NCBI RefSeq assembly: GCF_002240225.1
Contig: NZ_CP022584.1
Location: 4,627,850 to 4,691,849 of the forward strand
DNA length: 64,000 nt
From: Paenibacillus physcomitrellae
GTDB taxonomy: Bacteria > Bacillota > Bacilli > Paenibacillales > Paenibacillaceae
Reading direction: 5' to 3'
The notes under the pieces are model-generated. The model worked only from the letters and a program-made list of their open reading frames with translations, ran no database searches and was not told the DNA's origin. Shown piece after piece: positions 2,341 through 22,766 of the stretch; the first letter of the stretch is position 1; every line of letters begins with the position of its first letter. The position numbers were made by a program, and so were the translations under genes.

Positions 2341-4146
2341 ATGAAATCATTCCGTACCAGATTGGCCTGGATCCTGATGGGGCTGGTCGGCATCTCCATG
2401 TGCGCGGCCGGCCTGACCATGGCCAAAGTATTTAAGGATTCCCACATTTCCGTTCTGGAAGATAATATGGCCCGGGAAATAAATGTGTTGTCGAGTACCT
2501 TTGCATTTAGGCCGGCGGAGGATAATCCGGATGCCTTAAGCTACTATTCCTCCAAAGCAGTTGAATTAGACAAGCTTACCGGGCTTCGGGTTACATTCAT
2601 CCGGTCGGATGGTCTAGTCATAGGCGATTCCGAAAGCAATGCCTCTGAAATGGAAAATCACCTGAACCGTCATGAGATCAAGACGGCCGGACAAGCCGGT
2701 TCCGGCAATCCGGGCACTTCTATTCGGTTCAGCGATACCATCAAGGAAGATATGCTGTATGTCGCCGAAAAGGTAACCAGCAATCAGGGATTTGACGGAT
2801 ATATCCGGCTCGCAATGAGCCTGCATACGGTTAAGGAAGGGTTATGGAAGGCATGGTCCCTGATGATCGGGGGGCTGCTGATCCTGTTTGTGGCTGCGGG
2901 ACTGTTCAGCTATCGGCTGGCTTACAGCATTACTAAGCCGCTCAACAAAATTACCCAGGTTGCCAATCGGATTTCCAGGCTGGATTATGACGCCAGGGTT
3001 TATTTGCAGCGGAGAGTGGATGAAATCGGGCAGCTTGGCGGTGCCATCAACCGGATGGCGGACAGCCTTCAGCAGCAGCTTAAAATTATCCGCGAGAATG
3101 AAGATTTGCTGCAAAGCGTACTTGCCAATATGACTGGCGGTATTATAATCGTCGATGTCGAGGGGCATATCGCGCTGGTTAACCGTGCGGCCTGCCGGAT
3201 TTTACGGGTACGGGAGCAGGAAATAATCGGAAGACCATACCAGGAAATTAAACGAAGTTATGAATTGACTAAATTTATTGAAGAAGGCGTATCGCGCAGA
3301 GGTTATGTATCCGAAGAACTGACTGTTTATGATCCGGAAGAGAAAATTCTGCGAATAGACGTTGTGCCGATGTATGAAGAAGGCGACGGCTACCGGGGCA
3401 TGTTGTTCCACTTCCAGGATGTCACGGAAATCCGCAAACTTGAAAGGATGCGCAGCGAATTTGTTGCGAACGTGTCCCACGAGTTGAAGACGCCGATCGC
3501 TGCCGTGCAGGGATTCGCCGAAACGCTGCTAACAGGCGAAGTGAAAGATGAGGAGACGGCCCGTTCTTTCCTGCAGATCATTTATGATGAAGGAGACCGG
3601 CTCAACCGGTTGATCGGGGATATTCTGGAGCTATCCAAAATCGAATCACGCCAGGTGCCGCTCGCATTTGAACCTATTGAAGTGCGCCCGCTGATTGAAA
3701 GCCTGTTTGAGGTTTTGAAATCGGCAGCAGACAAGAAATCCATCTCTTTGAAGCTTGAAGTACCGGAAGGCATGTTTATGGAAGGGGATGAAGACCGGCT
3801 GCGGCAAATTTTCATGAACCTGCTGTCCAATGCGATCAGTTATACCCCGGACGGCGGAAGAGTCAAATTAGCGGCTGATATTTTGGATGATGAAGAGGAA
3901 GAGAAAATCCGTTTTGTCATATCCGATACAGGAATCGGCATCCCGAAAAAAGATCTGCCCCGGATCTTCGAACGCTTCTACAGAGTAGATAAAGCAAGGT
4001 CGAGGAGCTCAGGCGGTACAGGGCTAGGCTTGTCTATTGTGAAGCATCTGGTGGACCTCAACCACGGGACCATCAAGGTGGAAAGCAAAGTCGGAGAAGG
4101 GACTTCGTTTATTTTGGACCTACCGATGGTTCAGCATATTGATTGA
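2341..4146 (+). CDS. phoR: Phosphate-sensing histidine kinase PhoR
   Basis: Membrane sensor kinase (601 aa) expected to phosphorylate PhoP under phosphate limitation. Order: TM1 about residues 10-30; extracytoplasmic PAS-like domain about 35-160; TM2 about 172-192; HAMP about 193-245; cytoplasmic PAS about 252-365; HisKA with NVSHELKTP (phospho-acceptor His380); HATPase with NLLSNAISYT (N box), DTGIGIP (G1), FERFYR (F box) and GGTGLGLS (G2). This layout is that of Bacillus PhoR. The RBS GGAGTG precedes the ATG. Unusually it lies upstream of phoP with a 134-bp gap, where B. subtilis has phoP first with the genes overlapping. The PhoR name rests on domain layout plus the neighbouring phoP, pstB and phoU. 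Confidence 0.88.
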   Translation: MKSFRTRLAWILMGLVGISMCAAGLTMAKVFKDSHISVLEDNMAREINVLSSTFAFRPAEDNPDALSYYSSKAVELDKLTGLRVTFIRSDGLVIGDSESNASEMENHLNRHEIKTAGQAGSGNPGTSIRFSDTIKEDMLYVAEKVTSNQGFDGYIRLAMSLHTVKEGLWKAWSLMIGGLLILFVAAGLFSYRLAYSITKPLNKITQVANRISRLDYDARVYLQRRVDEIGQLGGAINRMADSLQQQLKIIRENEDLLQSVLANMTGGIIIVDVEGHIALVNRAACRILRVREQEIIGRPYQEIKRSYELTKFIEEGVSRRGYVSEELTVYDPEEKILRIDVVPMYEEGDGYRGMLFHFQDVTEIRKLERMRSEFVANVSHELKTPIAAVQGFAETLLTGEVKDEETARSFLQIIYDEGDRLNRLIGDILELSKIESRQVPLAFEPIEVRPLIESLFEVLKSAADKKSISLKLEVPEGMFMEGDEDRLRQIFMNLLSNAISYTPDGGRVKLAADILDDEEEEKIRFVISDTGIGIPKKDLPRIFERFYRVDKARSRSSGGTGLGLSIVKHLVDLNHGTIKVESKVGEGTSFILDLPMVQHID

Positions 4147-4189
4147 TCCGAGGAGAAGTCGGGTTTAACTGGACAGGAAAAATAAGATT

Positions 4190-4228
4190 TTACACCAAGT
4201 TAACATTTCGGTGCTATGCTGATAATAA
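4190..4228 (+). promoter_or_regulatory. phoP promoter with a possible PhoP half-box pair
   Basis: TTAACA (4200-4205) and TAATAA (4223-4228) are separated by 17 bp, a reasonable sigma-A promoter. TTACAC (4190) lies 10 bp before TTAACA, resembling the TTWACA repeats bound by PhoP, which would allow autoregulation. This promoter explains how phoP can be expressed apart from phoR. Confidence 0.6.
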
Positions 4229-4280
4229 ATGAGTCCCGGCTTCCTGCCGGGCCATCCAGAACAGAAAAATGGGGGTACCT

Positions 4281-5012
4281 ATGGCTAAGCGATTGCTGGT
4301 TATTGAGGACGAGCCGACACTATCACGGCTGCTGTCTTATAACTTAAAGAACGAAGGCTACGAGGTTACAGTAGAGGAAAACGGCCAAAGCGGATGCGAG
4401 ACGGGGCTCAGGTCAAGCTTTGATCTGATTCTGCTGGATTTAATGCTTCCGGGAATGAACGGCTTTGAAATTATGTCCAAGCTGAGAAGCGAAGGTATTG
4501 GGACCCCGATCATTATTCTAACAGCTAAAAATGCCGAAGAAGAAGTGGTACAAGGACTTAAATCAGGGGCCGATGATTATATAACCAAACCGTTTGGCGT
4601 GGCCGAGCTTCTTGCCCGCGTCGCTGCGGTGCTCCGTAGATCCTCAGGGGACGAGGAAATCGTGAAGCCAATGCTGGAAACCGAATCTCAGATTGTATTG
4701 GGAGAACTGGTTATTTATCCGGAGAAATACGAAGTAACGCTGGGCGGTGAAACGATTACTCTTCGTCCGAAAGAGTTTGAAGTTCTGCTCTACCTGGCCC
4801 GCAAGCCTGGAGTCGTCATGACTAGAGACGATCTGATGAATGCAGTATGGGGATTCGACTACATTGGCGGACAACGTACGGTGGACGTGCACGTCAGCTC
4901 GCTCCGCAAGAAGCTAGAACTCGATCCCGAATCGGTGCATATTGATTCAATCCGCGGTGTTGGGTACAAGCTGGTAGTAAATAAGAAAAAAGGGTTATCC
5001 CAGAAGGCTTAA
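4281..5012 (+). CDS. phoP: Phosphate response regulator PhoP (OmpR family)
   Basis: Response regulator of 243 aa, partner of the upstream PhoR. The receiver domain has the acidic pair in VIEDEP, phospho-acceptor Asp53 in LLDLMLPG, Thr in ILTAKN and Lys103 in DDYITKPFG. The C-terminal winged helix (about residues 140-235) has LRPKEFEVLLYLARKPG and the RTVDVHVSSLRKKLE recognition region of OmpR/PhoB proteins. Start is ATG 4281, six bases after GGGGG at 4271; the in-frame ATG at 4269 would sit on top of that RBS. A terminator overlaps the stop codon. Confidence 0.88.
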   Translation: MAKRLLVIEDEPTLSRLLSYNLKNEGYEVTVEENGQSGCETGLRSSFDLILLDLMLPGMNGFEIMSKLRSEGIGTPIIILTAKNAEEEVVQGLKSGADDYITKPFGVAELLARVAAVLRRSSGDEEIVKPMLETESQIVLGELVIYPEKYEVTLGGETITLRPKEFEVLLYLARKPGVVMTRDDLMNAVWGFDYIGGQRTVDVHVSSLRKKLELDPESVHIDSIRGVGYKLVVNKKKGLSQKA

Positions 5013-15663: not shown

Positions 15664-15713
15664 CTATCTTGTCGCTGCTAAAGTTAATAACTAACTAATA
15701 GCAACTACAATAT

Positions 15714-15797
<84 letters not shown>

Positions 15798-15809
15798 TTC
15801 TTTTTAAAG

Positions 15810-15851: not shown

Positions 15852-16166
15852 AATTTTTGGATACAGGAGGGCGATCTTGGAACTCCGGATATTAAACCAA
15901 ACGTCAACTTAAGGTATTCGCTACCTGTCTCCTTCGGGCCAATTTTTGTTGACTGTCCACAGATCGGATCATTAAGGACATGAACGCCTTCGGCACGCAA
16001 ATACCTTTTGCTTTGTTCTCCGCATTTAAATCAATACGCGAAAAAGACTTAATAATAATTTAATAAATCCCTTATGACGGCTTAATTTCAATTATCAGCG
16101 GCCAAATCTATAATTCAATTACAGCAAATAACACACCAAAATTATAGGAAATGGGGAATTTTCAAG
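15852..16166 (+). promoter_or_regulatory. Upstream region of the DM13 lipoprotein gene
   Basis: No gene seen. A candidate promoter is TTCAAT (16087-16092), 16-bp spacer, TATAAT (16109-16114). GGGGA at 16152 is the RBS, about eleven bases before the start. The rest is AT-rich with no repeats that I could recognise. Confidence 0.5.
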
Positions 16167-16970
16167 ATGAAAAAGCTTTGGATGGCAGGAGCAACGATGA
16201 TGGTTACGGCGGCAGTGCTTGCCGGATGCGGTTCGGGAAAGGAGGCAGCGAATACGTCACCTGCAGCCTCAGCCGAGGCGCAGGCTTCGGCGCCGGAAGC
16301 CTCAGTCGCAGCAGCAGTCGTTAAAACCGGGATGTTGAGCCCAATCGGCAAGGAAGTATCACAAGGCAACATAGAAATCAAAGACGGAAAATTGATGCTC
16401 ACCAACTTTAAAACCTCGGAAGGTCCGGATCTGCACATCTATTTGGCCAAAGAGCAGGACATAGCCACAGGAAAAAGTCTCGGTAAAATTGACCTGAAGC
16501 AATCGGAGCAAACCTTCGATCTGGCCGGCGCCGATCCGGAGGAATACGATTCCGTTGTCATCTACTGCAACAAGGCGCATGTGGCATTTGGCGCTGCTAA
16601 TTTAAGTGATGGCAATTCGGCCGATGGCGGGACAACGACTTCGGAAACAGCAGATACAACGGATACTACAGTCGCAATGGTTAAAACCGGGATGTTGAGC
16701 CCAATCGGCAAGGAAGTATCACAAGGCAACATAGAAATCAAAGACGGAAAATTGATGCTCACCAACTTTAAAACCTCGGAAGGTCCGGATCTGCACATCT
16801 ATTTGGCCAAGGGGCAGGACATAGCCACAGGAAAAAGCCTCGGTAAAATTGACCTGAAGCAATCGGAGCAAACCTTCGATCTGGCCGGCGCCGATCCGGG
16901 GGAATACGATTCCGTCGTCATCTACTGCAACAAGGCGCATGTGGCATTTGGCGCTGCTGATCTGAAATAA
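16167..16970 (+). CDS. Lipoprotein with two tandem DM13 domains
   Basis: 267 aa. Signal peptide with lipobox VLAGC, so Cys21 would be lipidated and the protein anchored outside the membrane; an Ala/Ser-rich linker follows. Two copies of a DM13-like domain (about 52-148 and 172-267) are nearly identical and exactly 120 residues apart. Each has GNIEIKDGKLMLTNFKTSEG, GPDLHIYLAK and the end YDSVVIYCNKAHVAFGAA; the conserved Cys before the last strand is typical. DM13 is thought to act in redox or electron transfer at the cell surface, but experimental evidence is thin. It begins a likely operon with a DoxX protein and a two-component pair. Confidence 0.8.
   Translation: MKKLWMAGATMMVTAAVLAGCGSGKEAANTSPAASAEAQASAPEASVAAAVVKTGMLSPIGKEVSQGNIEIKDGKLMLTNFKTSEGPDLHIYLAKEQDIATGKSLGKIDLKQSEQTFDLAGADPEEYDSVVIYCNKAHVAFGAANLSDGNSADGGTTTSETADTTDTTVAMVKTGMLSPIGKEVSQGNIEIKDGKLMLTNFKTSEGPDLHIYLAKGQDIATGKSLGKIDLKQSEQTFDLAGADPGEYDSVVIYCNKAHVAFGAADLK
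16321..16599 (+). repeat. First copy of a 279-bp intragenic direct repeat
   Basis: Identical to 16681-16959 except at about six positions (16451, 16453, 16478, 16540, 16555, 16599). The exact 360-bp offset keeps the frame. At least two changes are synonymous. It encodes one whole DM13 domain. Confidence 0.95.
16681..16959 (+). repeat. Second copy of the 279-bp intragenic direct repeat
   Basis: Partner of 16321-16599. The spacer between the copies (16600-16680) is unrelated, encoding a Thr/Ser/Ala-rich linker, so the duplication unit is the domain or the linker has diverged. Confidence 0.95.
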
Positions 16971-17105
16971 CGTTTCCGGGGGCCTCTTCTGGACGGTAAA
17001 GGAGAAGCCCTCGAAAATTGTCCAGGTAAATACCGGGAAAACATCAGGACGATAATGAAGGTACGTTCGAAAGGATAGCATTAGAAACAGAAAGGCGGTG
17101 TTACG

Positions 17106-17564
17106 GTGAAAGTCATTTATCTTCTGGCCGGATATGGGTTTAGCCTGCTTCGGGTAGTGTTTGGATTGATGTGGTTCAAGTCTGGCTATGCCAAAATTTC
17201 CGGGGGGTTTGGCGTGGAAAGTCTGGTCCCGGTTGTTGCCGCCAATGCCGATTCACCGGTGTGGTATAAGCATTTTTTTGCCCAGGTGGTAGGTCCGTAT
17301 GCGAATGTGTTTGATCTGGTCATTCCTATTGGAGAGCTGCTGATCGGAGTAGGTCTGGTGCTCGGACTGCTGGCAGTGCCGGCAATTGTCATGTCAGTGT
17401 TCGTTAATGTAAACTATATCCTGGCGGATATGATCTTTACTTATCCAGCCGAAATCATGCTTGCGGTCATTTTGTTAGTGGGCCATAAGTTCAGCACCGC
17501 TGTAAGCATAGAGCGCTGGCTGTACCCGAAATGGAAAAATCGCAGGCTGGACACGGGGATGTGA
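17106..17564 (+). CDS. DoxX-family membrane protein
   Basis: 152 aa with four predicted membrane helices. LLRVVFGLMWFKSGYAKISGGFG at the start and the central PIGELLIGVGLVLGLLAVPA segment match DoxX/DoxD, a family first known as a membrane subunit of thiosulfate:quinone oxidoreductase and also found with redox stress proteins. GTG start at 17106, shortly after AAAGGCGG. It lies between the DM13 lipoprotein gene (136 bp upstream) and the response regulator gene, whose start is at or just after its stop codon. A membrane redox role with the DM13 protein is inferred. Confidence 0.8.
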   Translation: MKVIYLLAGYGFSLLRVVFGLMWFKSGYAKISGGFGVESLVPVVAANADSPVWYKHFFAQVVGPYANVFDLVIPIGELLIGVGLVLGLLAVPAIVMSVFVNVNYILADMIFTYPAEIMLAVILLVGHKFSTAVSIERWLYPKWKNRRLDTGM

Positions 17565-17569
17565 CCGTA

Positions 17570-18271
17570 TTGTCTTCTATTTTGATTGTTGATGATGAAA
17601 GGCCAATTGTAGAGATTTGCCAGTTGTATTTACGAAATGAAGGATACACGGTTTACACCGCCAGCAACGGCGAAGAAGCGGAGGAAATGGTCCGGAACCA
17701 TCCGATTGATTTCATCGTGATTGATGTGATGATGCCAAAGAAAAATGGCTATGAGTTTATTGAAATGCTTCATAATGAAGGGATGGATATCCCTTTTTTA
17801 TATTTGACGGCGCTGAATCAGGAGAAGGATACGTTGTACGGCCTTGCACTGGGAGCAGACGATTATATTACCAAGCCCTTTAGCCCTAGGGAGCTGGCCT
17901 TCCGTATTAAAAATATATTGAAGCGGGTTAATAAATTTAAACAGACCGAGGTCCGTTTTTTGCGCGAGAAAGAACTTTATTTGAACAAGGATGAACGCGA
18001 AGCCCGCCTCTATGGAGAAATACTTGATTTGACGAACAAAGAGTTTGATTTGCTGTGGACCCTGGTCGAAGAGAAGCATCGCGTATTGTCTAAATCCGAG
18101 CTGCTGAAAAAGGTATGGGGTTACGAATATTACGAAGACGCCGCTACGGTTAATGTTCATATTCATCATTTACGCGAAAAATTGGCTGCTTTGGATAAAG
18201 GAAACACGCTGTCCATTAAGACAGTATGGGGCATTGGTTACCAATTCAAGGGAGAGGAGGGGGAGCAATAA
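17570..18271 (+). CDS. OmpR-family response regulator of the DM13-DoxX locus
   Basis: About 233 aa. Receiver: VDDE acidic pair, phospho-acceptor Asp52 in VIDVMMPKK, Thr in YLTALN and Lys in DDYITKPFSP. C-terminal winged helix with ILDLTNKEFDLLWTLVEEKHRV and ATVNVHIHHLREKL. The start is uncertain: TTG 17570 has GGGGA ten bases before it; GTG 17561 and ATG 17531 are open alternatives with poorer RBS, and 17531 would overlap doxX by 34 bases. Its stop overlaps the kinase start by one base, so it works with that kinase. Confidence 0.85.
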   Translation: MSSILIVDDERPIVEICQLYLRNEGYTVYTASNGEEAEEMVRNHPIDFIVIDVMMPKKNGYEFIEMLHNEGMDIPFLYLTALNQEKDTLYGLALGADDYITKPFSPRELAFRIKNILKRVNKFKQTEVRFLREKELYLNKDEREARLYGEILDLTNKEFDLLWTLVEEKHRVLSKSELLKKVWGYEYYEDAATVNVHIHHLREKLAALDKGNTLSIKTVWGIGYQFKGEEGEQ

Positions 18272-19320
18272 TGAAGCTGCGAACCGTCCTGCTGCTTTCT
18301 TATTTGGCTAGTTTATGTGTGGTAACGCTGCTGCTGTTTGGCGCTTACCAGCAAATGTTTCTGGATTACAATAAGCTGAAAATGGCTATGGTCATTACGA
18401 TATCATCCAGTGTGTTATCCTTGTTGATCAACTCCTTTTTTATTTTTCCGATGGCTAAAGCGATCGCCCGGTTGAATAAACAAAGCCAGGCAATTGCCAA
18501 GGGGGAGTATGACATTAGCGTTACGGAAAGCCGTACCCTCGAGCTACATGAATTGGGAAAGTCGCTGCATATGATGGCCCAGGAAATCAAGGAAAAAATC
18601 ACTGCGCTTCAGCAAGAGGAAAGCAGGCGCAATGAATTGATTGCCAATCTGTCGCATGACATCAAAACGCCGTTAGCTTCCATACGTTCATATTCGGAAG
18701 CGCTGCTTGACGGGATGGTGCATAAGCCGGATGACGTCCGCAGCTATTTGCTTGGTATCGGAGAGCAAACCGAACGGGTCGTATCCTTTGCCAATGAGCT
18801 CTTCTCCATCGCGGCCATTGACCAGAAAAATATTGAAATCAGCATGGAAATTTTGTGGCTTGATCAGCTTTTGGTGAACACACTGCAAACCTTTGAGGCG
18901 CAAATCGTGAAGGAGAACCGAACAATCGAAGTCAAGATCAGCGAGGAGTGCGTTTCGGTTTATACGGACAAAACCTGCATGGAGCGGATCTTATACAATC
19001 TGATCGGCAACGCAATTAAATTCTCCAGACCGGGGACAACCATTTGGCTAAATATATATAATGACAGAGATTATACCTGTTTTGAAGTAAAGGATGAAGG
19101 AACCGGAATTCCTTCCGACAGGCTAAATCGGATTTTTGACCGGTTTTACCGGGTAGAGGAATCGCGCAATCAAATGTATGGAGGGGCCGGCATTGGCCTT
19201 GCCATCGCGAGAGAGCTGACAGAACTGTTACAGGGCCAAATTTCGGCGACCTCTGTTTATGGAGCCGGAAGCACATTTACGGTCCGCCTTCCGAACCACC
19301 CCGATTCCGGTAAAGAGTAA
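18271..19320 (+). CDS. Histidine kinase with minimal external loop
   Basis: 349 aa. TM1 about 6-26 and TM2 about 38-60 leave a loop of only about a dozen residues outside, so a large ligand-binding domain is absent; this is the layout of intramembrane-sensing kinases that respond to partner membrane proteins. HAMP about 61-112; HisKA with NLSHDIKTPLASIRSYSEAL (His129); HATPase with NLIGNAIKFS, DEGTGIP, FDRFYR and GAGIGLAIA. Start ATG 18271 with GAGAGGAGGGGG upstream. Possible partners are the DoxX protein or the lipoprotein of the same locus. Confidence 0.85.
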   Translation: MKLRTVLLLSYLASLCVVTLLLFGAYQQMFLDYNKLKMAMVITISSSVLSLLINSFFIFPMAKAIARLNKQSQAIAKGEYDISVTESRTLELHELGKSLHMMAQEIKEKITALQQEESRRNELIANLSHDIKTPLASIRSYSEALLDGMVHKPDDVRSYLLGIGEQTERVVSFANELFSIAAIDQKNIEISMEILWLDQLLVNTLQTFEAQIVKENRTIEVKISEECVSVYTDKTCMERILYNLIGNAIKFSRPGTTIWLNIYNDRDYTCFEVKDEGTGIPSDRLNRIFDRFYRVEESRNQMYGGAGIGLAIARELTELLQGQISATSVYGAGSTFTVRLPNHPDSGKE

Positions 19321-19405
19321 AGCAATCCCATGTATTCAAATTTCGCAGTTGGCGCAAACACTTTCTCTCTCATTTGCGCCTGAGAAAATTTATAATAAAA
19401 TAGTA

Positions 19406-19434
19406 TTGACATGTCCCAGTATTTTCTGTAATAT
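19406..19434 (+). promoter_or_regulatory. Promoter of tRNA-Ala
   Basis: TTGACA (19406-19411), 17-bp spacer, TAATAT (19429-19434). Before it, GGCGCAAA (19352) and TTTGCGCC (19372) form a hairpin without T tract that may mark the end of the kinase transcript. Confidence 0.8.
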
Positions 19435-19474
19435 TTAGAAGTCGCCTCTGAAAAGACGACGATATACGAAATGA

Positions 19475-19547
19475 GGGGCCTTAGCTCAGCTGGGAGAGCG
19501 CATCGCTGGCAGCGATGAGGTCAGGGGTTCGATCCCCCTAGGCTCCA
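19475..19547 (+). tRNA. tRNA-Ala (anticodon GGC)
   Basis: 73 nt. Acceptor GGGGCCT pairs with AGGCTCC (one G-U) with discriminator A. D arm with AGCTCAGCTGGGAGAGC, anticodon stem CATCG/CGATG around CTGGCAG giving GGC, T arm with GGTTCGATCCC. CCA is not encoded. Confidence 0.96.
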
Positions 19548-19551
19548 TATT

Positions 19552-19601
19552 AAAAAAAGCCTTTAAACACAAGGATTTTCGAGTGTTTGAAGGCTTTTTT
19601 C
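19552..19601 (+). terminator. Terminator after tRNA-Ala
   Basis: AAAAAAAGCCTTTAAACAC pairs with GTGTTTGAAGGCTTTTTT around a 12-base loop. Confidence 0.85.
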
Positions 19602-19629
19602 TATGCTTGGATAGTGATTGTTTCTCATC

Positions 19630-19658
19630 TTTACAAGCCTGAAATGAGATTCTATAAT
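19630..19658 (+). promoter_or_regulatory. Promoter of the fusB-like leader
   Basis: TTTACA (19630-19635), 17-bp spacer, perfect TATAAT (19653-19658). Transcription should start near 19665, giving a leader of about 210 nt before the EF-G-binding protein gene. Confidence 0.75.
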
Positions 19659-19673
19659 GTTAACTGTATGTGT

Positions 19674-19852
19674 AGAAGTTCGAAAGGGGAATCCATAAGT
19701 GGCAGTTGTTTGCTTGTAGGCGGCAAAAGTGCAAAATTTCGTGAGTTCGTTCACGGAATACGTATGCCCTTTTGACCTAATACAAGGAACTTCTCGCATC
19801 ATATTTTTTGGATACCGACGGAGTGCCTTATTTGAGGTACTCCGTTTTTTTT
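19674..19852 (+). promoter_or_regulatory. Leader RNA with mini-ORF and terminator (putative attenuator)
   Basis: AGAAGTTC (19674) can pair with GAACTTCT (19787-19794), and CGAAAGGG (19681) with CCCTTTTG (19767-19774), so the 5' part folds back on itself. That helix covers AAAGGGG, an RBS nine bases before GTG 19699, which opens a six-codon ORF (MAVVCL, stop 19717-19719). A terminator hairpin, CGGAGTGCC (19819-19827) with GGTACTCCG (19836-19844) plus eight T, ends 23 bp before the fusB-like start. This fits ribosome-mediated transcription attenuation, as described for other antibiotic-resistance genes. I could not find the antiterminator pairing. Confidence 0.55.
19699..19719 (+). CDS. Possible six-codon leader peptide of the fusB-like gene
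   Basis: GTG-initiated ORF encoding MAVVCL with a good RBS (AAAGGGG at 19683-19689, nine-base spacing). It lies in the leader between the promoter and the attenuator-like terminator. Function is inferred only from position. Confidence 0.4.
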   Translation: MAVVCL

Positions 19853-19875
19853 GGGTGAACTGAGGAGGAAAACAC

Positions 19876-20523
19876 ATGCTAACGCCATTTATGGAAAACC
19901 ACGAATTTAATTTGATCAAACGCCTGTTGGGGCGCCTCGAATATAACATCAAAACCACAGCCGACCAGAAAGTTATATCGGCCATCCGGCACACGACTTG
20001 GACCCGGGTCATGGAGATGTTCCCTGCTATGACGGAGGAACAGAAGCGGTTTTTCGACCGGATTCCGACGCTAAACCGTGCCGAGGAGTTCCATGCTTAT
20101 TTGAGCGAGCTGGAGTCATGCGTGACAGCCTTTCCGCAGGTAACGGAACAGCAGCTGAAGAAGCTTTATCCCAAAATTAAAAAGCTGAAGCTTCCGCCGC
20201 TGTCCGAGCTCGATTTCCGCTTCCTGACCTATATCGGCTGGGCCGACATTTCAACGAATAAACTATTCATCGTCTACAATCTGGACGGGAAAATGACGGG
20301 CATTGAGGGCCGGTTCACCCCGACGAACAAGAAGGGGGTCTGCTGCCTCTGCAACAAGCATGAAGAGGTGGCCTTCGTGACCGCGCAGACGAAAGCCAAG
20401 GGACCGGCATTGGATCATTTTGGGCGGGTCGGAAATTATATGTGCATCGACAGCGCCAAGTGCAACCAGAATATTACCGATGTGTCTCAACTGGAACGGT
20501 TTATGAAGGATGTTTTAAACTAA
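19876..20523 (+). CDS. FusB/FusC-family elongation factor G-binding protein
   Basis: 215 aa, the normal length of FusB-type proteins, which bind EF-G and release it from the ribosome in the presence of fusidic acid. The N-terminal helical half includes LPPLSELDFRFLTYIGWADI, matching the family's IPQFEEYDLKVSSFVGWNEL region. The C-terminal half has GVCCLCNKHEE, the later GNYMCIDSAKCNQ and DVSQLERFM; the four cysteines are those of the family's zinc finger. RBS GAGGAGG at 19861. Chromosomal homologues exist in many Bacilli, so resistance is possible but not proven. Confidence 0.85.
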   Translation: MLTPFMENHEFNLIKRLLGRLEYNIKTTADQKVISAIRHTTWTRVMEMFPAMTEEQKRFFDRIPTLNRAEEFHAYLSELESCVTAFPQVTEQQLKKLYPKIKKLKLPPLSELDFRFLTYIGWADISTNKLFIVYNLDGKMTGIEGRFTPTNKKGVCCLCNKHEEVAFVTAQTKAKGPALDHFGRVGNYMCIDSAKCNQNITDVSQLERFMKDVLN

Positions 20524-20581
20524 CCAAGCTAGTTTTGAGAGAAATAGAGAAGCTTCCGGGGGGGGGAATCCCGGAGAATGT

Positions 20582-20618
20582 ACACGGGCAGGCCGACCGG
20601 CCTGCCCGTGTTATTTTC
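20582..20618 (+). terminator. Terminator after the fusB-like gene
   Basis: A perfect 13-bp stem, ACACGGGCAGGCC (20582-20594) with GGCCTGCCCGTGT (20599-20611), followed by TATTTT. Confidence 0.85.
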
Positions 20619-20962
20619 CTTTGAGCTATCGGATCGGGATCGGGAAATAGGTATGTGTACGCAGCTAGAGAAAACTTGACGATGGGCGGCAAACCTGTGC
20701 CAAAGCTGATGGTCCGGCTGCCGCTTCAACTGGTCTTCATCGGATCGGTCCTTTTGGCGTCGCCCATGTTTGGTTAGGACGATCGGGTACCCACCGTCTG
20801 AGTCATTTTGGCTTTCGCCCCTTTGCCGCTTGGCAGTAATGGAAGCGATGCTGAGCCGGGAGCCCTAGTAAATAGAGATAGGGGAAGGTTGAAATAAATT
20901 GAATATTTTTCCAATATGAGGATATCCTGTTGTTAGTTGTGAGCGGGAAAGGAATTCAAGCG
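20619..20962. other. Intergenic stretch without recognised gene
   Basis: No coding frame with family similarity on either strand. A weak promoter may exist near the right end (TTGAAA around 20889 with AATATG near 20913). GC-rich middle part could be a gene relic, but nothing identifiable remains. Confidence 0.4.
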
Positions 20963-21823
20963 ATGAATGCCATGTTTTGGAAAAATACAATTTGGTTTGT
21001 TTTACTCGGAATGACAACGATTCTGGAATTGGTCTTGATTTTCCGGAAAGCCGATGACCGAAGGCGGACAGCCGCAGTATATTTAACCATCAGCGGGATG
21101 ACGTTCTGTTTTGAAATGTTTGTTTTATCCTATTTAAAGGCATATAACTATTATCCGAAAATCTTCCCCGACTCTTCTGCAGACGATAATATTGCCGGGA
21201 ATTTGTTTTCCCAGTTCTCGGTTTCGGCCACGGCACTGCTGCTGACGGTTTTTGATCTGAATGGGGTGTGGAAGCTGATCTTTATTGCGGCGTACAGCGG
21301 CATTGAAGAAGGTTTTAAAGCGTTGGGGATTTACCGTCAGCACTGGTATCGTACCTGGATGACTATGGTGAGCCTTCTTCTGCTGTTCTGGGTAGCCAAA
21401 CATACTTGTGCTGCTGGCAGGACTTATTTGAAGCGTTGGCTTCGGTACTTGTTTATTTTCCTGGGTTTAATTACGCTGCATGAGCATCTGATTGTATGGG
21501 TGTTGAGATTAACTGGCATTCGGCTCCTGAGCGAGCATGTATTGCCTGATAAAGAGCACAGCTTAGTTGTTTTATCAGCTTTCTATATGCTGCTGCTGGG
21601 CGTATTCGTTATGTTCCTCTATTTTTCGAGCATTCGCTGGGGATGGAAGCTGCTGCTGCTAGCGGTTCTTTATTTTGGACATTGGCTGGCAGCCCGCTAT
21701 AATTTGATTCTCTACAAAGAGAGCTGGATGTGGATCGCTTCATCCATTTCAATTTGGAGCATGTATGGATTTACATTCTTGCTCGACAAGCTGTACGGGA
21801 GTTACCCTGAACCCAAACCTTAA
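20963..21823 (+). CDS. Multi-pass membrane protein, CBO0543-like
   Basis: About 286 aa with eight or so hydrophobic helices and no catalytic motif. The segment YNYYPKIFPDSSADDNIAGNLFSQ between helices resembles the conserved region of CBO0543-type membrane proteins of Bacilli, whose function is unknown. Start ATG 20963 follows AAAGGA by about nine bases; TTG 20930 is an open alternative. A terminator (21842-21879) follows. The family assignment is from memory of the motif and is moderate. Confidence 0.55.
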   Translation: MNAMFWKNTIWFVLLGMTTILELVLIFRKADDRRRTAAVYLTISGMTFCFEMFVLSYLKAYNYYPKIFPDSSADDNIAGNLFSQFSVSATALLLTVFDLNGVWKLIFIAAYSGIEEGFKALGIYRQHWYRTWMTMVSLLLLFWVAKHTCAAGRTYLKRWLRYLFIFLGLITLHEHLIVWVLRLTGIRLLSEHVLPDKEHSLVVLSAFYMLLLGVFVMFLYFSSIRWGWKLLLLAVLYFGHWLAARYNLILYKESWMWIASSISIWSMYGFTFLLDKLYGSYPEPKP

Positions 21824-21841
21824 TATTGGATGCAACTCCTT

Positions 21842-21887
21842 ACCCGCCAAACCAAAGGATCTGTCCTGTATTGGCGGGTTCATTTCT
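21842..21887 (+). terminator. Terminator after the CBO0543-like gene
   Basis: ACCCGCCAA (21842-21850) pairs with TTGGCGGGT (21871-21879), followed by TCATTTCT, a weak T tract. Confidence 0.6.
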
Positions 21888-21965
21888 CCCCTACGAATTT
21901 ATCCTGTTAATCCCAATTCTATTATGGGATAATTTAGGAAAACGGAAGAGGGGCGGCTATAAAAG

Positions 21966-22766
21966 ATGGGAACGATGATAGAATCCGTACCGGTCATCGA
22001 GATCAAGGATCTAAGGATGAGATACGGAGCAAGATTTGTGCTGAATGGCATTGACCTTACGGTACATACCGGTCAGATAATTGGATACATAGGACCTAAT
22101 GGAGCGGGAAAAAGCACCACCGTCAAGATCATGCTGGGGCTTGTGCAGGGATATACCGGCGAGGTGCGTATTTTTGGGCAGGACATCGCGGAGGCCGGGC
22201 CTGATTATAAACGCAGAATCGGTTATGTGCCCGAGGTGGCAGACCTTTACGATACGCTCACAGCCCGCGAGTACCTGACGTTTATTGGCAGACTTTACGG
22301 GATAGACGCCCGGGAGGCCGAATACAAAGGGCTGCAGATGGCGGATATTTTAGGACTTAGAACTGCTTTCGACAGCCGGATTGCCTCTTATTCCAAAGGG
22401 ATGAAACAGAAGGTGATGCTGATCTCGAGCCTGCTGCATAATCCGGATATTTTATTTCTGGACGAACCGCTTAGCGGTCTTGATGCCAACAGTGTGATGG
22501 TGATTAAGGAGATCTTAGAACTGCTGTCGCAGCAGGGGAAAGCGATCTTTTATTCTTCTCATATCATGGATGTCGTTGAAAAGGTCAGCAGCCGGATTAT
22601 CTTGTTAAATGACGGGCGAGTTGCGGCCGACGGCAGCTTTGAAGAGCTGAAGGCGCAAAATCTGGAGAGCAGTCTGGAGGATATTTTTACGCAGCTTACG
22701 GGGTTTGATGAGCACCGGAGTTTGGCTGAACGTTTTGTTGCAGCGGTGAACGAGGTGGATCGATGA
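21966..22766 (+). CDS. ABC transporter ATP-binding protein (ABC-2 exporter type)
   Basis: 266 aa. Walker A GPNGAGKST near residue 43, signature YSKGMKQKVMLISSLLHNP (SKGMKQK, a common variant in ABC-2 systems), Walker B ILFLDEPLSGLDANS, H-loop YSSHIMDVVEKV, then a C-terminal extension. Its stop overlaps the start of the permease gene, so they form one exporter. A candidate promoter, TTAATC and TAATTT 17 bp apart, lies near 21907-21935. Substrate unknown; daunorubicin- or Ecs-like exporters are similar. Confidence 0.85.
   Translation: MGTMIESVPVIEIKDLRMRYGARFVLNGIDLTVHTGQIIGYIGPNGAGKSTTVKIMLGLVQGYTGEVRIFGQDIAEAGPDYKRRIGYVPEVADLYDTLTAREYLTFIGRLYGIDAREAEYKGLQMADILGLRTAFDSRIASYSKGMKQKVMLISSLLHNPDILFLDEPLSGLDANSVMVIKEILELLSQQGKAIFYSSHIMDVVEKVSSRIILLNDGRVAADGSFEELKAQNLESSLEDIFTQLTGFDEHRSLAERFVAAVNEVDR

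What the first reader, a model, noticed from the sequence alone, without database searches (positions are those of the whole stretch)
16167..19320. DM13 lipoprotein, DoxX protein and two-component pair form a candidate surface redox-sensing system
Four co-directional genes with small gaps or overlaps encode a double-DM13 lipoprotein, a DoxX membrane protein, an OmpR-type regulator and a histidine kinase with only about twelve residues outside the membrane. DM13 and DoxX are both linked in the literature to membrane redox chemistry, but this combination with a dedicated kinase is not one I know. The short sensor loop suggests the kinase reads a membrane partner, possibly DoxX. I infer a system that monitors electron flow or thiol/sulfur stress at the cell surface.
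Basis: partly seen in the sequence, partly recalled or inferred. Interest (0 to 1): 0.75.

Follow-up and report, generated by a model that had tools for sequence, protein, structure and literature searches.

The report
Sae sensor system in Paenibacillus relative
The four genes are a relative of the saePQRS sensor system that controls virulence genes in Staphylococcus aureus, here in a soil-type Paenibacillaceae bacterium, and close relatives of its kinase sit beside surface methionine-repair genes, which gives a testable hint about what this sensor family detects.

Summary
DM13 lipoprotein, DoxX membrane protein, OmpR-type regulator and short-loop kinase are the saeP-saeQ-saeR-saeS operon of Staphylococcus. 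Gene order, protein sizes, the saeQ/saeR overlap, reciprocal best hits, four of five SaeR DNA-contact residues, the loop methionine (SaeS M31) and a SaeR-type box (TTAA-N7-TTAA) upstream of the first gene all agree. Complete operons were found only in Staphylococcus/Mammaliicoccus, a few Paenibacillaceae, Fictibacillus and one other sampled Bacilli family; 7 of 396 Paenibacillaceae genomes carry all four genes. Likely mechanism, by homology to S. aureus: autoinduced kinase/regulator pair reset by a SaeP-SaeQ complex that turns on the kinase's phosphatase. The redox idea is unproven but gains indirect support: of 50 ccdA-thioredoxin-msrAB (surface methionine-sulfoxide repair) loci in the family, 33 have an adjacent SaeRS-like pair, 2 a full saePQRS, 14 an unrelated YesNM-type pair. 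The window's own msrAB locus has a YesNM pair, so the link is not direct here. SaeP carries two near-identical DM13 copies (1-3 in relatives). Known kind, new member; interest moderate.

The parts
16048..16063 (+). SaeR-type box CTTAATAATAATTTAA (TTAA-N7-TTAA), 119 nt upstream of the lipoprotein gene
   Evidence: same core upstream of the first gene in 10 of 11 non-staphylococcal relatives examined (near miss in L029); chance per upstream region 1-3%; SaeR consensus GTTAA-N6-GTTAA in PMC5083920
16081..16096 (+). second, weaker repeat CTTAATTTCAATTATC, overlapping the expected -35 position
   Evidence: read from the sequence; similar TTAAT-T-CAATT in relatives L021, L022, L026-L028; role inferred
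16109..16114 (+). TATAAT, candidate -10 of the autoregulated promoter (P1 equivalent)
   Evidence: sequence only; inferred
16167..16970 (+). saeP-like lipoprotein, 267 aa, two DM13 domains, lipobox Cys21, DM13 Cys134 and Cys254
16309..16601 (+). DM13-coding repeat, copy 1
   Evidence: 97% identical to copy 2
16669..16961 (+). DM13-coding repeat, copy 2
17106..17564 (+). saeQ-like DoxX-family membrane protein, 152 aa
17531..18271 (+). saeR-like OmpR-family response regulator, 246 aa (Asp65; start may be GTG 17561 or later)
18271..19320 (+). saeS-like intramembrane-sensing histidine kinase, 349 aa (His129)
18352..18384 (+). extracytoplasmic loop of the kinase, with the invariant Met29 (18355-18357; SaeS M31 equivalent)
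   Evidence: Met in 41 of 41 aligned kinases

Best explanation
This is a saePQRS-type system. The saeS-like kinase is an intramembrane-sensing kinase that signals through its two helices and short loop. It phosphorylates the saeR-like regulator, which binds TTAA-N7-TTAA repeats upstream of saeP and switches on its own operon. The induced SaeP lipoprotein (outside) and SaeQ DoxX protein (in the membrane) then bind the kinase and turn on its phosphatase, resetting the system. Shown here: homology, synteny, conserved DNA-contact residues and conserved box. Inferred from S. aureus: phosphorylation, autoinduction, complex formation and phosphatase control. Unknown: the natural signal and the target genes; no convincing second target box was found in this genome.
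For: Same four genes, order and orientation in named Staphylococcus, Mammaliicoccus, Paenibacillus and Fictibacillus genomes, and a short overlap of the second and third genes in most staphylococci and in the window. Sizes match S. aureus (146/157/228/351 aa). Reciprocal best hits with wide margins: S. schweitzeri SaeS to the window kinase 209 bits, next 116; SaeR to the window regulator 244, next 166; window kinase to SaeS in 5 of 5 staphylococcal genomes, 204-219 bits, next at most 137. SaeR contacts K174, H198, R201, W218 kept, R199 is H; the paralogues compared differ at K174 and H198. SaeR-type box upstream of the first gene. The two-component tree joins the window, its relatives, staphylococcal SaeRS and the SaeRS-like pairs of the msrAB loci with 100% support against nine paralogues.
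Against: Identity to staphylococcal proteins is only about 32-54%, so signal and targets may differ. The tandem DM13 form was not seen in the staphylococci examined. The box here has C and T instead of G at the two first positions. The P3 promoter inside saeQ was not demonstrated. The node that joins staphylococcal and Paenibacillaceae operons to the exclusion of the msrAB-linked pairs has only 72% support.
Confidence: 0.87

Rival explanations
1. Signal is extracellular oxidation: the Sae-type kinase reports oxidants at the cell surface, perhaps through the invariant loop methionine or the DM13 cysteine of SaeP, and its original output is repair of oxidised surface proteins (ccdA, thioredoxin, msrAB).
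For: 49 of 50 long-form ccdA-trx-msrAB loci in the family have a two-component pair; 33 are SaeRS-like, 2 are full saePQRS (19 nt and about 490 nt from kinase to ccdA), 14 YesNM-type. YesNM/ModRS pairs control this cassette in pneumococcus and Fusobacterium, where it answers oxidative stress (PMC11034029, PMC9239216). 6 of 7 sae genomes of the window type (G265 counted although its saeQ is a remnant) have the cassette against 44 of 389 others (Fisher p 2e-5; 2e-4 after collapsing relatives). Loop Met in 41 of 41.
Against: In the window's genome and in G075, G156 and G220 the cassette is elsewhere, has its own YesNM pair and no SaeR-type box upstream. The SaeRS-like pairs beside msrAB lack saeP and saeQ. 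S. aureus M31C is constitutively active and the authors judged M31 itself not critical (PMC4388633). Co-occurrence is not corrected for phylogeny beyond collapsing sisters.
Confidence: 0.3
2. Signal is envelope damage or membrane-active compounds (antimicrobial peptides, fatty acids, detergents), as described for S. aureus SaeS, with no redox role.
For: S. aureus SaeS answers HNP1, and SDS and fatty acids alter its activity (PMC5083920, PMC4388633). Intramembrane-sensing kinases as a class are regarded as cell-envelope sensors (title of a review cited in PMC5083920). No redox gene stands beside the operon in the window.
Against: Does not explain the repeated placing of Sae-type pairs beside msrAB or the kept DM13 cysteine.
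Confidence: 0.4
3. DM13 plus DoxX is a working surface electron-transfer module, and the two-component pair merely controls its expression.
For: G202 (P. rhizosphaerae) and G307 keep DM13 + DoxX with no kinase or regulator nearby. DM13 is annotated as an electron-transfer domain and its Cys is invariant. DM13 copy number expands to 3.
Against: DoxX has no cysteine in the window; in S. aureus SaePQ act on SaeS; G265 keeps DM13, regulator and kinase with only a saeQ remnant. I found no report of redox activity of SaeP.
Confidence: 0.15

Closest known systems
SaePQRS of Staphylococcus aureus and other staphylococci
   Same: Same four families in the same order, similar sizes, short overlap of genes 2 and 3, reciprocal best hits, short-loop kinase with HAMP, loop Met, SaeR contact residues, SaeR-type box upstream of the first gene.
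   Different: About 32-54% protein identity; saeP has two DM13 copies instead of one; half-sites start with C/T; virulence targets not expected; targets unknown.
SaeRS-like pair beside ccdA-thioredoxin-msrAB in Paenibacillaceae (33 loci, not named in the papers I found)
   Same: Full-length relative of the kinase (34-36% identity, 206-216 bits against at most 149 for other kinases) and of the regulator; same loop Met; same tree clade (100%).
   Different: No saeP or saeQ; mostly a small exported protein with a Cu_amine_oxidN1 match instead; K174 and H198 positions are R; coupled to msrAB.
ModRS of Fusobacterium nucleatum and YesNM (TCS09) of pneumococcus
   Same: Two-component pairs controlling ccdA-thioredoxin-msrAB (PMC9239216, PMC11034029).
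   Different: In Paenibacillaceae the YesNM type is an unrelated kinase/regulator family (Cache + His_kinase, AraC-type regulator). ModRS sequences were not compared here.

Membership tests
SaePQRS system | Four genes lipoprotein-membrane protein-regulator-kinase, co-directional, in that order | tested here: met
SaePQRS system | SaeP: lipoprotein with DM13 domain | tested here: met
   two DM13 copies here
SaePQRS system | SaeQ: DoxX-family membrane protein | tested here: met
   (24.4 bits, cut-off 23.6); about 37-47% to staphylococcal SaeQ
SaePQRS system | SaeS: two helices, short loop (9 aa in S. aureus), HAMP, kinase domain; no sensor domain | tested here: met
   loop about 11-12 aa
SaePQRS system | Regulator and kinase orthologous to SaeR and SaeS (reciprocal best hits) | tested here: met
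   kinase both ways; regulator one way; operon context supports the other
SaePQRS system | SaeR DNA-contact residues K174, H198, R199, R201, W218 | tested here: met
   four of five identical, R199 is H
SaePQRS system | SaeR box (TTAA-N7-TTAA core) upstream of saeP | tested here: met
   binding itself not tested
SaePQRS system | Weak constitutive P3 promoter inside saeQ | tested here: inconclusive
   one 9-of-12 promoter-like match at 17386, weak
SaePQRS system | SaePQ complex activates SaeS phosphatase | not testable with these tools
   known in S. aureus (PMC5083920)
SaePQRS system | Regulon of secreted virulence proteins | tested here: inconclusive
   strict box pattern: 5 matches in the genome against 2 for the reversed control; no clear target
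msrAB-linked oxidative-stress TCS | Adjacent to ccdA-thioredoxin-msrAB | tested here: not met
   cassette is elsewhere in G000 with a YesNM pair; met only in relatives G144 and G264

The most novel reading that the evidence does not exclude
Sae-type kinases are sensors of oxidised cell-surface protein or of oxidant at the membrane face: their ancestral job in soil Bacilli is to switch on methionine-sulfoxide repair, and staphylococci re-used the same sensor to detect the oxidative burst of neutrophils. The invariant loop methionine and the DM13 cysteine would be the reporting residues.
Probability: 0.25. Interest if true: 0.8.

Novelty: new member of a known kind. Interest (0 to 1): 0.45.

Why it matters
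What SaeS senses, and how, is still open (PMC5083920). A complete saePQRS operon outside the staphylococci, and close SaeRS relatives placed next to surface methionine-sulfoxide repair in 35 of 50 loci, turn that question into simple reporter tests in harmless soil bacteria. For the window itself it replaces a 'new redox system' by a named, studied one.

Tried and rejected
Regulon search with the strict box gave 5 hits against 2 in the control and no convincing second target. SaeR-type boxes upstream of msrAB in G000, G075, G156, G220: none. An empty site in genus relatives could not be shown: the neighbouring FusB-like gene is in another context in G064. No solved structure matches the DM13 domain or the SaeQ profile, so no fold argument was made; structure prediction was not run because homology already settled the identity. 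The DUF4406 match of the lipoprotein is borderline and was ignored. The idea of a brand-new system was rejected.

Full report
What is there. Between tRNA-Leu (15713-15798) and tRNA-Ala (19475-19547) lie four co-directional genes: a lipoprotein with two DM13 domains, a DoxX-family membrane protein, an OmpR-type regulator and a histidine kinase. The kinase has two hydrophobic helices, a loop of about 11-12 residues, HAMP and a kinase domain.

What it is. A literature search for DM13 and DoxX together gave one paper, on saeP of S. aureus; its discussion says SaeP looks like DM13 and SaeQ like DoxX. I then tested the identity. A scan of about 85,000 species genomes with an alignment of the DoxX protein found 36 loci, all in Staphylococcus, Mammaliicoccus, Paenibacillus (one labelled Bacillus sp. 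FJAT-27264) and Fictibacillus macauensis. In 34 of them the four genes stand in the same order, a few with broken or shortened frames. S. schweitzeri, of the S. aureus complex, has SaeP 146, SaeQ 160, SaeR 228 and SaeS 351 aa. Best hits are mutual for the kinase and agree for the regulator, with wide margins over all paralogues. SaeR contact residues K174, H198, R201 and W218 are kept. A TTAA-N7-TTAA core stands 119 nt before the first gene, and upstream of the first gene in nearly all relatives; Fictibacillus has four half-sites in a row at 11-bp steps. The S. aureus consensus is GTTAA-N6-GTTAA, with TTAA the essential part.

Distribution. 11 of 396 Paenibacillaceae genomes have a DM13 match. 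Seven hold the full operon; G265 has a saeQ remnant only; G202 and G307 have saeP-saeQ-like genes without the pair; G374 has a DM13 protein without such neighbours. In a class-wide sample 46 of 399 genomes have DM13; all nine genomes that I examined of the presumed Staphylococcus genus have the operon, one of another family (G547) has it, and the DM13 genes of the remaining families examined stand without it. The concatenated tree separates the staphylococcal from the Paenibacillaceae/Fictibacillus operons (midpoint root). Between the window and its sister G075 the stretch from about 16000 to 22000 is mostly 94-100% identical while flanks are mostly 78-93%, which suggests recent exchange of this block.

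How it works. In S. aureus the phosphorylated regulator induces its own operon from P1, and SaeP and SaeQ then bind SaeS and induce its phosphatase. The conserved parts here make that the most likely mechanism. Nothing beyond sequence was tested.

The redox question. Two relatives, G144 and G264, have ccdA, a thioredoxin-like gene and an MsrA-MsrB lipoprotein just downstream of the kinase. I therefore collected every long-form msrAB of the family: 50 of 396 genomes. All but one have a two-component pair at the locus: 33 a SaeRS-like pair without saeP and saeQ, 2 full saePQRS, 14 a YesNM-type pair (the class was assigned by best BLAST match, and L173 and L190 are weak members). The SaeRS-like pair joins the Sae clade with 100% support against nine sampled paralogues. 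YesNM and ModRS pairs are known to control this cassette, which defends against oxidants. The loop methionine, SaeS M31, is present in 41 of 41 kinases; its conservation in Firmicutes was noted before. The window's genome has the cassette elsewhere with a YesNM pair and no SaeR box, so for this organism the link is by family only.

Lipoprotein repeats. DM13 copies per protein are 1 in staphylococci, G075, G144 and G204, 2 in the window, P. agri, Fictibacillus and others, 3 in FJAT-27264 and Paenibacillus sp. 2.1. Copies mostly group by species or species pair, so duplications seem repeated and recent; the window's are 97% identical in DNA while its sister has one.

What is new. SaeP homologues in Paenibacillus and Fictibacillus were already listed in a table (PMC5020093), and SaeS homologues in other Firmicutes were aligned before. 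I found no paper describing the complete operon in Paenibacillaceae or the link to msrAB, within the open-access library searched.

Noticed in passing
L022, L027, L150-L161, L171-L206: The ccdA-thioredoxin-msrAB cassette of Paenibacillaceae almost always carries a two-component pair, but of three different kinds (SaeRS-like, YesNM-type, full saePQRS), as if the sensor had been swapped.
   Followed up: yes
L156 762-1292, L157 758-1294, L158 796-1419 and similar: A small exported protein with a Cu_amine_oxidN1 match precedes the SaeRS-like pair at msrAB loci, in the place that saePQ hold in Sae operons; possible accessory protein.
   Followed up: partly
window 16309-16961: 293-nt in-frame tandem duplication (97% identical) doubles the DM13 domain; relatives have 1 to 3 copies.
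   Followed up: yes
window about 16000-22000 against L021: Block is mostly 94-100% identical to sister genome G075 while flanks are mostly 78-93%: likely recent exchange; it includes the sae operon and the FusB-like gene.
   Followed up: partly
L028 9147-9427: saeQ reduced to a remnant between intact saeP-like and saeR-like genes in G265.
   Followed up: partly
L024 5567-6912, L029 6759-8118: DM13 lipoprotein and DoxX gene without any kinase or regulator nearby.
   Followed up: no
window 19876-20523: FusB/FusC-like elongation factor G-binding protein gene (possible fusidic acid protection), below the curated NCBIfam cut-offs.
   Followed up: no
window 2341-5012: Another OmpR-type kinase and regulator pair, kinase gene before regulator gene.
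   Followed up: no
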